From NCBI GenBank assembly GCA_018650465.1, contig JABIFY010000118.1:1-64000 (forward strand): a DNA stretch of 64,000 bases. The letters run 5' to 3'. Shown here in pieces: positions 13,068 through 15,361 of this stretch. The position numbers were made by a program, and so were the translations under genes. This DNA is from Alphaproteobacteria bacterium. Lineage in GTDB: Bacteria > Pseudomonadota > Alphaproteobacteria > UBA2966. A model generated the notes under the pieces. It did no database searches. It saw only the letters and a program-made list of their open reading frames with translations, and was not told where the DNA came from. Within the stretch, counting starts at the first letter, position 1. Each line of letters starts with the position of its first letter.

Positions 13068-13838
13068 ATGACGTCACAATCGAACTGGATACCGGTTTCA
13101 GGCAGCGGTGATCTGGCGGCAGCCAGTGCCCGTGCAGTTGTTTTGCCAGACCATGATGTCGTGATCTGGCGCACAAAAACCGGTGCCGTTCACGCCTGGG
13201 AAAATCGGTGTCCCCATCGTGGCATGCGCATGTCCTTTGGTCAGGTTCGGGACGAAAAACTGGTTTGTCGCTACCATGGCTGGGGCTTTGATGAAGAGGG
13301 GCAATGCCAGAATATCCCGGCGTCACCAAATGCCGCCGCGCCCCCTACGGCCTGCATAAAGACCTGGTCTTGTACCGAGAAAGACAATTTGATCTGGGTC
13401 GATGTTTCAGATGAATCTGCGGGCGAGGGCTCTGCAATGTCTGGTGATAGCGACGGCGTAAGCTCATTGATGTTTTGTAAAAGTGTTTATACCGATGGCG
13501 ATTTGGACAAGGTGTTGGCACTTGTTGGATCGGCGAGGTTCTTGCCCCTCGGGTATGATGGCGACGGGAGGGATCTGGACTGGTCCATGACTGACTTGCC
13601 TGACTTGGTGGGGGATGCGATACAGATTTTGGTATCCGGTGCTGGTTCGGATCAAATTGTCATCACCGGGCATCAGGCGCGAGATGGACGCTGCGGGCTT
13701 CATATCATGACTCCATCAACGGGAGATCATGACCTCGATCGCCAGCGCCGGCTTCACTATTCAAAGTGGGCAAAACGCCTGCGCTGGTCATTGTCAAATC
13801 CTGATGCCGCCCAGGATGGGTTTTCGGTTTTTTCCTGA
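13068..13838 (+). CDS. Rieske [2Fe-2S] protein with unrecognised C-terminal domain
   Basis: CPHRGMRMSFGQVRDEKLVCRYHGWGFDEEGQCQNIP Rieske motif; about 140 aa C-terminal part without a recognised reductase or mononuclear-iron motif. Confidence 0.85.
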   Translation: MTSQSNWIPVSGSGDLAAASARAVVLPDHDVVIWRTKTGAVHAWENRCPHRGMRMSFGQVRDEKLVCRYHGWGFDEEGQCQNIPASPNAAAPPTACIKTWSCTEKDNLIWVDVSDESAGEGSAMSGDSDGVSSLMFCKSVYTDGDLDKVLALVGSARFLPLGYDGDGRDLDWSMTDLPDLVGDAIQILVSGAGSDQIVITGHQARDGRCGLHIMTPSTGDHDLDRQRRLHYSKWAKRLRWSLSNPDAAQDGFSVFS

Positions 13839-13858
13839 GTTCAGAGGACTTCAAATTC

Positions 13859-14716
13859 ATGACCCAGATAGATTCTACAACCTTGAACCAATGGTATGTG
13901 ATTCAGAGCAGTGCAGCCCTGACGCCTTCTCAACCAAGGAAAACGCGTTTGTTGGGGCGCGACATTCTGGCAGTACGACAAGAGGATGGTCAGGCCACAG
14001 CATGGGAAGTTTCGACTAAAGGAGAGCAGGGGCAGGCACTGCCTGTTCGCGAATGTTATGACTATGTCTGGACAACCCTGGGGGAGCCCGATGGTGATAT
14101 TTTCAGCATGCCAGAATTCTATGAGGACGGCCGGCGCATGGTTGTTTGCGGTATCGCCACCGTGCAAACATCACCTGGGCGTATTATTGAAAACTTCCTC
14201 GATATGTCACACTTTCCCTTTGTGCATACGGATGTTTTGGGGGCAGAACCTGATACCGAAGTGAATAACTATAAGGTCAATTTACGGAAAGACGTGAACG
14301 AGCTTTGGGCAACCGAATGTGGCTTTTACCAGCCCAAGGCCATGGCCTCCGCGACTGAGGGTATAGAAGTTGACTACCAGTACCGCGTCGCCAATCCCTT
14401 CGCAGCGATCCTGTACAAAACCTGTCCCGACCGGGCTGATGCCATGGACCTGGTGGGTATTTTGCCCCAGCCCCTGGACGAAACAAATTGTGACATCCAC
14501 TATTTCATGCTGGTCTTTGATGATGTGAATTCAGATCAGGAACTGATCCAGTTTCAGCAAGGCATCTTGATGCAGGACCGGGTTATTCTGGAAAATCAGC
14601 GGCCGCGCGAGTTGCCGTTGCAGCGCGGTGCTGAAATTACCATCCGCGCCGATGCCGCTTCCATTCAGTATCGCCGCTGGATAAAGGAAATGGGCGTTGG
14701 CTTTGGAACACTTTAG
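13859..14716 (+). CDS. ring-hydroxylating oxygenase-like catalytic subunit lacking Rieske ligands (NdmC-like architecture)
   Basis: Mononuclear iron motif ENFLDMSHFPFVHTDVLG and QDRVILENQRP; N-terminal NQWYVI...RDILAVRQEDGQATAWEV is present but no CxH...CxxH follows. Confidence 0.8.
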   Translation: MTQIDSTTLNQWYVIQSSAALTPSQPRKTRLLGRDILAVRQEDGQATAWEVSTKGEQGQALPVRECYDYVWTTLGEPDGDIFSMPEFYEDGRRMVVCGIATVQTSPGRIIENFLDMSHFPFVHTDVLGAEPDTEVNNYKVNLRKDVNELWATECGFYQPKAMASATEGIEVDYQYRVANPFAAILYKTCPDRADAMDLVGILPQPLDETNCDIHYFMLVFDDVNSDQELIQFQQGILMQDRVILENQRPRELPLQRGAEITIRADAASIQYRRWIKEMGVGFGTL

Positions 14717-14728
14717 GACCTGTCCGGT

Positions 14729-15361
14729 ATGATAAAACTTTACGATTATATCCTCTCGGGCAGCTGCTATAAGGTGCGCCTGATGCTCAATATCCTGAAC
14801 ATCGAATATGAAGTTGTGCCGGTTGATTTTTATCCTGGTCTTGAGCACAAAAAACCGGAAATGCTGGCGCTTAATCCCTTGGGGCAACTGCCTGTAATGG
14901 TCGATGGAGACCTGGTTTTGCGCGACGCCCAATCAATTCTTGTATACCTTGCGTCAAAATTTGACGACAGTAATTCCTGGTTTCCGGATGACGCTGCAGC
15001 GCGGGGCCAGGTTGCCATGTGGACAGCCTTTGGTGGTGGCGAAATTATGGCGGCGTCCGCGGCCCGCCTGCATGACGTACTAAACTACCCGTTTGATATC
15101 GATCAGCAACGCAAATCTGCCCATGCAGCCTTTGTGATCCTCGATGATCACATCGCCGAACAGGAGATCATGGGCTTGGACTGGTTGGCCGGAGGGGCCC
15201 CGACCATCGCAGATATTGCCTGCTTCCCTTATGTTTCGCTCAGTGAGGACGGTGGAATATCACGTGAGGAATATCCGGCCATCGAACGCTGGTTACGCCG
15301 GTTCATGGATATTCCGGGTTTTATCGATATGCCGGGTGTGTTGCAGCACTGGCGGAATTGA
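14729..15361 (+). CDS. glutathione S-transferase family protein
   Basis: LYDYILSGSCYKVRLMLNIL...LNPLGQLPVMVDGDLVLRDAQSILVYLA GST N-domain; WLAGGAPTIADIACFPYV C-domain. Confidence 0.9.
   Translation: MIKLYDYILSGSCYKVRLMLNILNIEYEVVPVDFYPGLEHKKPEMLALNPLGQLPVMVDGDLVLRDAQSILVYLASKFDDSNSWFPDDAAARGQVAMWTAFGGGEIMAASAARLHDVLNYPFDIDQQRKSAHAAFVILDDHIAEQEIMGLDWLAGGAPTIADIACFPYVSLSEDGGISREEYPAIERWLRRFMDIPGFIDMPGVLQHWRN

What the first reader, a model, noticed from the sequence alone, without database searches (positions are those of the whole stretch)
13068..15361. Split Rieske oxygenase plus GST: an NdmC/D/E-like three-protein system with a stand-alone Rieske subunit
Sequence: gene 1 (256 aa) carries CPHRG...CRYHGWGF; gene 2 (285 aa) has the mononuclear iron motif ENFLDMSHFPFVHTDVLG and QDRVILENQRP, keeps the first Rieske-fold strands (NQWYVI...RDILAVRQEDGQATAWEV), but has no CxH/CxxH where the cluster should sit; gene 3 is a GST. 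Gaps are 20 and 12 bp, so they are likely one transcript. Established: in Pseudomonas putida CBB5 the caffeine N7-demethylase is a complex of NdmC (catalytic domain without Rieske), NdmD (reductase carrying the extra Rieske) and NdmE (GST-like). Inference: this operon uses the same division of labour, but with the Rieske domain on its own polypeptide instead of on the reductase, so electrons would come from a reductase encoded elsewhere.
Basis: partly seen in the sequence, partly recalled or inferred. Interest (0 to 1): 0.87.

Follow-up and report, generated by a model that had tools for sequence, protein, structure and literature searches.

The report
Split Rieske oxygenase with GST partner
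Three neighbouring genes encode an oxygen-using enzyme whose two halves (electron-carrying cluster and catalytic iron) sit on separate proteins plus a helper, a close relative of the bacterial caffeine N7-demethylase in an arrangement that turns out to be common, purine-linked and unstudied.

Summary
Gene 1 (13068-13838) keeps both Rieske ligand pairs; gene 2 (13859-14716) keeps the mononuclear-iron site, but the cluster-binding part of its Rieske domain is deleted; gene 3 (14729-15361) is a GST. Gaps are 20 and 12 bp. Homology, not just analogy, links them to NdmC/D/E: against the ndm cluster of Paraburkholderia caffeinilytica, gene 2 is 41% identical to NdmC over its full length, gene 3 is 50% identical to NdmE, and gene 1 matches the N-terminal part of NdmD. 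In 91 gene-2 and 91 gene-1 homologues the loss is perfectly complementary. All 80 related genome loci carry all three genes within a few kb; none is fused to a reductase and only one has a reductase nearby. Elsewhere the reductase is fused to gene 1 (Sinorhizobium, NdmD-like) or to gene 2 (Variovorax). Gene 1 also carries a vestigial catalytic fold, a point not in the finding. Neighbouring BMP transporters and guanine/8-oxoguanine deaminases point to a purine substrate, though xanthine dehydrogenase is also present. Split RO+GST clusters were already reported to occur beyond Pseudomonas, so this is a variant of a known kind.

The parts
11731..12972 (+). BMP/PnrA-family (purine nucleoside type) substrate-binding protein, neighbour conserved in this genus and in other architectures
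   Evidence: Pfam Bmp 1.5e-51; same order in L009; BMP beside the triad in L069, L089, L091, L092
12986..13021 (+). strong hairpin ending in a T run: terminator-like, after the BMP gene, suggesting the triad is its own transcription unit
   Evidence: -29 kcal/mol, z -6.1; kept with a changed stem sequence in L009
13068..13838 (+). gene 1: stand-alone Rieske subunit with vestigial catalytic domain
   Evidence: Pfam Rieske 1.7e-22; AF2 model pLDDT 88; Foldseek to SxtT over the whole chain; homologue of the NdmD N-terminus
13209..13277 (+). Rieske ligand region C48-x-H50 ... C67-x2-H70
   Evidence: sequence; invariant in A2; 91/91 locus homologues
13467..13796 (+). C-terminal vestigial catalytic domain of gene 1 without iron ligands
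   Evidence: strand/helix pattern, Foldseek, profile-profile alignment to gene 2 96.5%, 0/91 iron motifs
13859..14716 (+). gene 2: NdmC-like catalytic subunit lacking the Rieske cluster
   Evidence: VanA_C 1.3e-23; GxtA/SxtT TMq 0.84; 41% to NdmC over 283 aa
14012..14029 (+). junction in gene 2 where ~45 residues (cluster-binding part of the Rieske domain) are missing relative to SxtT
   Evidence: alignment
14189..14227 (+). mononuclear iron motif E111-N-x2-D115-x2-H118-x4-H123 (bridging Asp and two His)
   Evidence: invariant in A1, 91/91 loci
14576..14578 (+). third iron ligand D240 (QDRVILEN)
   Evidence: invariant in A1; aligned with the Asp of SxtT/GxtA
14729..15361 (+). gene 3: NdmE-like GST
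   Evidence: Pfam GST_N_3/GST_C_2; 50% to NdmE over 207 aa

Best explanation
Genes 1-3 encode one split Rieske non-heme iron oxygenase of the NdmCDE kind. An unlinked VanB/PDR-type reductase passes NAD(P)H electrons to the Rieske cluster of gene 1. The gene 1 cluster docks beside the mononuclear iron of gene 2 and passes single electrons through the bridging Asp115, replacing the intersubunit transfer of normal alpha3 oxygenases. The gene 3 GST is a structural, probably non-catalytic, partner that holds the two together, as proposed for NdmE. Genes 1 and 2 descend from one SxtT/NdmA-like alpha-type fold and have lost opposite metal sites. The substrate is most likely a purine or N-methylpurine taken up with the BMP-type binding protein. 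Shown: the genes, the complementary loss, homology to NdmC/D/E, tight gene linkage and the fusions. Inferred: complex formation, electron route, GST role and substrate (purine ~0.6; hydroxylation versus N-demethylation undecided).
For: Complementary ligand loss 91/91 vs 0/91. NdmC 41%, NdmE 50%, NdmD N-terminus 32% over 137 aa; the gene 1 profile matches NdmD-type N-termini at ~1e-50. All three genes close together in 80/80 genome loci and in 7/7 gene-2 genomes of an evenly drawn set of 395. Reductase fused to gene 1 (Sinorhizobium, Pseudomonas, Klebsiella), fused to gene 2 (Variovorax), or separate in the operon (Herminiimonas). Folds. Purine context: BMP in 55/80 loci, guanine/8-oxoguanine-deaminase-like genes in 49/80, above curated cut-offs in L022. 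NdmCDE biochemistry as reviewed in PMC4408171.
Against: No protein of this stand-alone arrangement was found assayed. 25 of 80 loci show neither BMP nor purine deaminase within the fetched stretch, and the window itself has no deaminase. XdhB scores above its cut-off in 19 of 20 gene-2 genomes, G000 among them, so replacing xanthine dehydrogenase is not the reason for the system. A lone gene 2 exists on a Roseicitreum plasmid. No dedicated reductase was identified in G000.
Confidence: 0.8

Rival explanations
1. Gene 1 is a general Rieske ferredoxin serving several oxygenases, gene 2 an oxygenase that borrows electrons from any ferredoxin, and the GST a catalytic detoxifying enzyme that happens to be nearby.
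For: Some genomes have two gene-2 copies per gene 1 (L069, L087, L094), so one Rieske protein may serve more than one catalytic subunit. The GST has both GST domains.
Against: Gene 1 is far longer than a Rieske ferredoxin and carries a vestigial catalytic fold; strict linkage of all three genes; NdmE is required and proposed structural (PMC4408171); window GST and NdmE both read DA where GSTs usually carry E/Q-S.
Confidence: 0.1
2. The system is a molybdenum-independent xanthine/hypoxanthine hydroxylase like HpxDE, in split form: it hydroxylates a purine ring carbon rather than removing an N-methyl group. (This rival concerns the reaction; the three-protein mechanism stays the same.)
For: HpxD is a distant relative (28% over 234 aa; hits named HpxD). 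Gene 2 lies between 8-oxoguanine deaminase and guanine deaminase in L022. P. putida L177 has HpxO and another Rieske oxygenase near an NdmC-like gene.
Against: XDH above the cut-off in 19 of 20 gene-2 genomes incl. G000; gene 2 is much closer to NdmC than to HpxD.
Confidence: 0.3
3. Gene 2 is a decaying pseudo-oxygenase and gene 1 an unrelated Rieske protein; the pairing has no function.
For: Gene 2 has lost the cluster site.
Against: Iron ligands and bridging Asp are conserved throughout; about two thousand homologues; gene grouping kept across classes.
Confidence: 0.01

Closest known systems
NdmC-NdmD-NdmE methylxanthine N7-demethylase (Pseudomonas putida CBB5; compared here with the Paraburkholderia caffeinilytica cluster, L176)
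   Same: Gene 2 = NdmC homologue, gene 3 = NdmE homologue, gene 1 = homologue of the pre-reductase part of NdmD.
   Different: Rieske part is its own protein; no reductase, NdmA/NdmB or frmA/frmB beside it; BMP binding protein upstream; the tree puts gene 2 outside the NdmC/Sinorhizobium clade.
HpxD/HpxE Mo-independent xanthine/hypoxanthine hydroxylase
   Same: Purine-linked Rieske oxygenase with VanB-type reductase; detectable sequence relationship.
   Different: HpxD has both Rieske and iron sites on one chain and no GST; only ~28% identity.
SxtT/GxtA and NdmA/NdmB (alpha3-type Rieske oxygenases)
   Same: Closest solved structures for both genes.
   Different: Both metal centres on one chain; no GST.
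Variovorax gene 2::reductase fusion and Sinorhizobium gene 1::reductase fusion (uncharacterised)
   Same: Same triad with GST and BMP protein.
   Different: Reductase fused to gene 2 or to gene 1.

Membership tests
NdmCDE-type split Rieske oxygenase with GST | catalytic subunit with mononuclear iron site and no Rieske ligands, homologous to NdmC | tested here: met
   41% over 283 aa, E 5e-78; 0/91 Rieske motif, 91/91 iron motif
NdmCDE-type split Rieske oxygenase with GST | NdmE-homologous GST encoded with it | tested here: met
   50% over 207 aa; GST beside gene 1 or 2 in the related loci
NdmCDE-type split Rieske oxygenase with GST | Rieske domain fused to the FMN/ferredoxin reductase (NdmD) | tested here: not met
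   gene 1 ends after the vestigial domain; no reductase in 79 of 80 genome loci; homologous to the NdmD N-terminal part only
NdmCDE-type split Rieske oxygenase with GST | tight three-protein complex required for activity | not testable with these tools
   needs purified proteins
NdmCDE-type split Rieske oxygenase with GST | N7-demethylation of 7-methylxanthine | not testable with these tools
   no frmA/frmB or ndmA/B seen in the neighbourhood; BMP and purine genes in relatives
Conventional Rieske oxygenase alpha subunit (VanA/SxtT) | Rieske cluster and mononuclear iron on the same chain | tested here: not met
HpxD xanthine hydroxylase | single-chain oxygenase with both centres, paired with HpxE | tested here: not met
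Catalytic cytosolic GST | GSH-binding E/Q-S motif | tested here: inconclusive
   window GST and NdmE read DA at that place, but Rhizobium johnstonii reads ES and other relatives vary

The most novel reading that the evidence does not exclude
A widespread class of Rieske oxygenases is built from two alpha-type subunits that have each lost the opposite metal site, so catalysis is obligately heteromeric. A simple three-membered ring of alternating subunits cannot give every iron a Rieske partner, so the complex must have a different symmetry, with the GST making the new interface; the vestigial catalytic fold in gene 1 (and in NdmD) would be an architectural element. These enzymes would oxidise modified purines in rhizobia and other alphaproteobacteria.
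Probability: 0.4. Interest if true: 0.7.

Novelty: new variant of a known kind. Interest (0 to 1): 0.52.

Why it matters
NdmCDE has been called very unique among Rieske oxygenases, and the structure of the complex was still unsolved in 2026 (PMC4408171, PMC13237722). The stand-alone version separates the Rieske subunit from the reductase, so each part can be purified and swapped, and the route by which electrons reach the catalytic iron can be tested directly. The family is common in plant-associated bacteria, sits with purine genes in most of the loci fetched, and no reaction of the stand-alone form was found in the papers searched.

Tried and rejected
Frameshift or assembly artefact: rejected (different frames, same gene structure in G001 and the other genome loci). 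Substitute for a missing Mo-xanthine dehydrogenase: rejected (XdhB above the cut-off in 19 of 20 genomes). Xanthine riboswitch control: no Rfam match in the window or in 8 related loci. Dedicated reductase in this genome: the best hit is in a BoxB/BoxC-like operon, named from sequence and memory only. Purine context as universal: not so, 25 of 80 loci lack it within the fetched flanks. Summers et al. 2013, the primary NdmCDE paper, is not held, so what it says about stand-alone Rieske genes could not be checked. Automatic ORF clustering of neighbours picked antisense ORFs in GC-rich loci and was used only for genes checked otherwise.

Full report
Observation. Gene 1 is a Rieske protein (1.7e-22) with C48-x-H50 and C67-x2-H70. 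Gene 2 matches the VanA C-terminal domain (1.3e-23) and no Rieske model. Gene 3 is a GST. Against SxtT/GxtA, gene 2 aligns weakly from residue 1 and strongly from residue 57 = SxtT 103, so the cluster-binding stretch is deleted. Its iron ligands and bridging Asp are invariant in 25 relatives.

Not chance, not an artefact. Gene 2 has 2052 homologues in one search, and the best 120 listed are nearly all about 285 aa. Gene 1 has 25 by single-sequence search. In homologues taken from related loci, 0 of 91 gene-2 proteins have a CxH...CxxH motif and 91 have NxxDxxHxxxxH; for gene 1 it is 91 and 0.

Linkage. A genome scan gave the 80 best loci. Genes 1 and 3 lie in the fetched stretch in most, and in the rest in the same genome a few kb beyond it. 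In an evenly drawn set of 395 alphaproteobacterial genomes seven have a strong gene-2 match, and all seven have gene 1 and the GST on the same contig. One lone gene 2 was seen on a Roseicitreum plasmid with no gene 1 on that replicon; the rest of that genome was not searched.

Relation to NdmCDE. The Paraburkholderia caffeinilytica plasmid carries two Rieske oxygenases (NdmA/B-like), an NdmC-like gene, a Rieske+VanB-type reductase, a GST, and formaldehyde genes. I identify it as the ndm cluster from this order and the organism; the record does not use the names. Gene 2 is 41% identical to its NdmC over 283 aa, gene 3 50% to NdmE over 207 aa, gene 1 32% to the start of NdmD over 137 aa. The gene 1 profile covers most of the pre-reductase part of NdmD and its relatives at about 1e-50; the C-terminal half of the profile alone finds only the Sinorhizobium one. 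I read NdmD as gene 1 plus a reductase. The review PMC4408171 reports that NdmC lacks a Rieske cluster, that NdmE is required and proposed structural, and that ndmCDE homologues of unknown function occur in other genera, mainly Sinorhizobium and Mesorhizobium. From memory, the abstract of Summers 2013 also says split RO plus GST clusters occur more broadly; the paper itself was not held.

Architectures. Stand-alone gene 1 with no reductase in the stretch: 79 of 80 genome loci, and plasmid operons of Rhizobium johnstonii, Shinella and Qingshengfaniella. Separate reductase in the operon: Herminiimonas. Reductase fused to gene 1: Sinorhizobium, P. putida KF715, Klebsiella. Reductase fused to gene 2: Variovorax. 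In the tree the fused NdmD types group with NdmC (SH-aLRT 97), and the window sits with L009 and L010 (99) inside a large group (88) whose sampled members have the stand-alone type (quick search, some long branches; Roseicitreum is the lone one). The stand-alone Rieske is therefore the common form and the studied NdmD the special one.

Gene 1 is more than a Rieske domain. The AF2 model (pLDDT 88) shows a second beta-sheet plus a long C-terminal helix. Foldseek aligns the chain to whole SxtT (E ~1e-16, TMq 0.63; rmsd is large, ~8 A, so the domain arrangement differs), and profile comparison to gene 2 runs across both domains (96.5%). I read this as a vestigial catalytic domain. Gene 2's model matches GxtA/SxtT at TMq 0.84, with low confidence at residues 121-130 near the iron site. 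So two alpha-type chains have lost opposite metal sites. Inference: alpha3 oxygenases pass electrons between neighbours around a three-membered ring (established for the family), and alternating two subunit types cannot satisfy a ring of three; the oligomer probably differs, and the GST is a candidate for the new contact.

Substrate. A BMP-type binding protein lies upstream here and in the congener, and in 55 of 80 loci; guanine/8-oxoguanine-deaminase-like genes in 49. In Mesorhizobium L022 adenosine deaminase, 8-oxoguanine deaminase and guanine deaminase all score above their curated cut-offs, with gene 2 between the last two. HpxD is a distant relative, and purine-associated HpxD-like Rieske genes under xanthine riboswitches are described in PMC7373994. 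But XdhB scores above its cut-off in 19 of 20 gene-2 genomes, including this one, so the enzyme probably handles something XDH does not, such as an N-methylated purine. This is inference; 25 loci show no purine genes in the stretch, and in G000 no protein passes the 8-oxoguanine deaminase cut-off.

Electron donor. In this genome the closest VanB-type reductase (38% to the Variovorax domain) lies in a BoxB/BoxC-like operon; no dedicated partner was found, so the donor is shared or unrecognised.

Transcription. A -29 kcal/mol hairpin with a T run separates the BMP gene from gene 1, kept with a changed stem in L009; the triad is probably its own transcript.

Verdict. Observation confirmed; interpretation supported, with the additions above. 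A new variant of a known kind (split RO plus GST), interesting because the parts are separable and the stand-alone family appears uncharacterised.

Noticed in passing
4080-6109 and 23391-25476: Two paralogous pairs of 4Fe-4S proteins resembling QueG/reductive dehalogenases (one member of each pair compared: 55% identical), each pair near an AMP-binding CoA ligase-like gene (7884-9443; 22099-23388); the first member of each pair has no Pfam match.
   Followed up: partly
L170 / G001:C40: The congeneric genome G001 has a second copy of the whole gene 1-2-3 set (gene 2 53% identical).
   Followed up: partly
L069, L087, L094: Two gene-2 copies near one gene 1 (or one gene 1-reductase fusion): one Rieske subunit may serve two catalytic subunits.
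   Followed up: no
L016, L032, L033 and about 20 other, mostly Rhizobium, loci: Neither BMP nor purine deaminases within the fetched stretch, often with gene 2 divergent from gene 1 and GST; the substrate may differ.
   Followed up: no
Rhizobial genomes, e.g. G408:C1:261497-263686, G407:C42:105688, G416:C26:401347: A second, below-cut-off XdhB-like molybdoenzyme lies about 10 kb from gene 1 in several rhizobial genomes.
   Followed up: no
L180, L092, L179: A small acylphosphatase gene directly precedes gene 1 in the Rhizobium/Shinella/Qingshengfaniella operons.
   Followed up: no
10048-11658: SulP-family transporter with STAS domain; a 536-aa ORF of the same length lies at the same place upstream of the BMP gene in the congener L009.
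   Followed up: no
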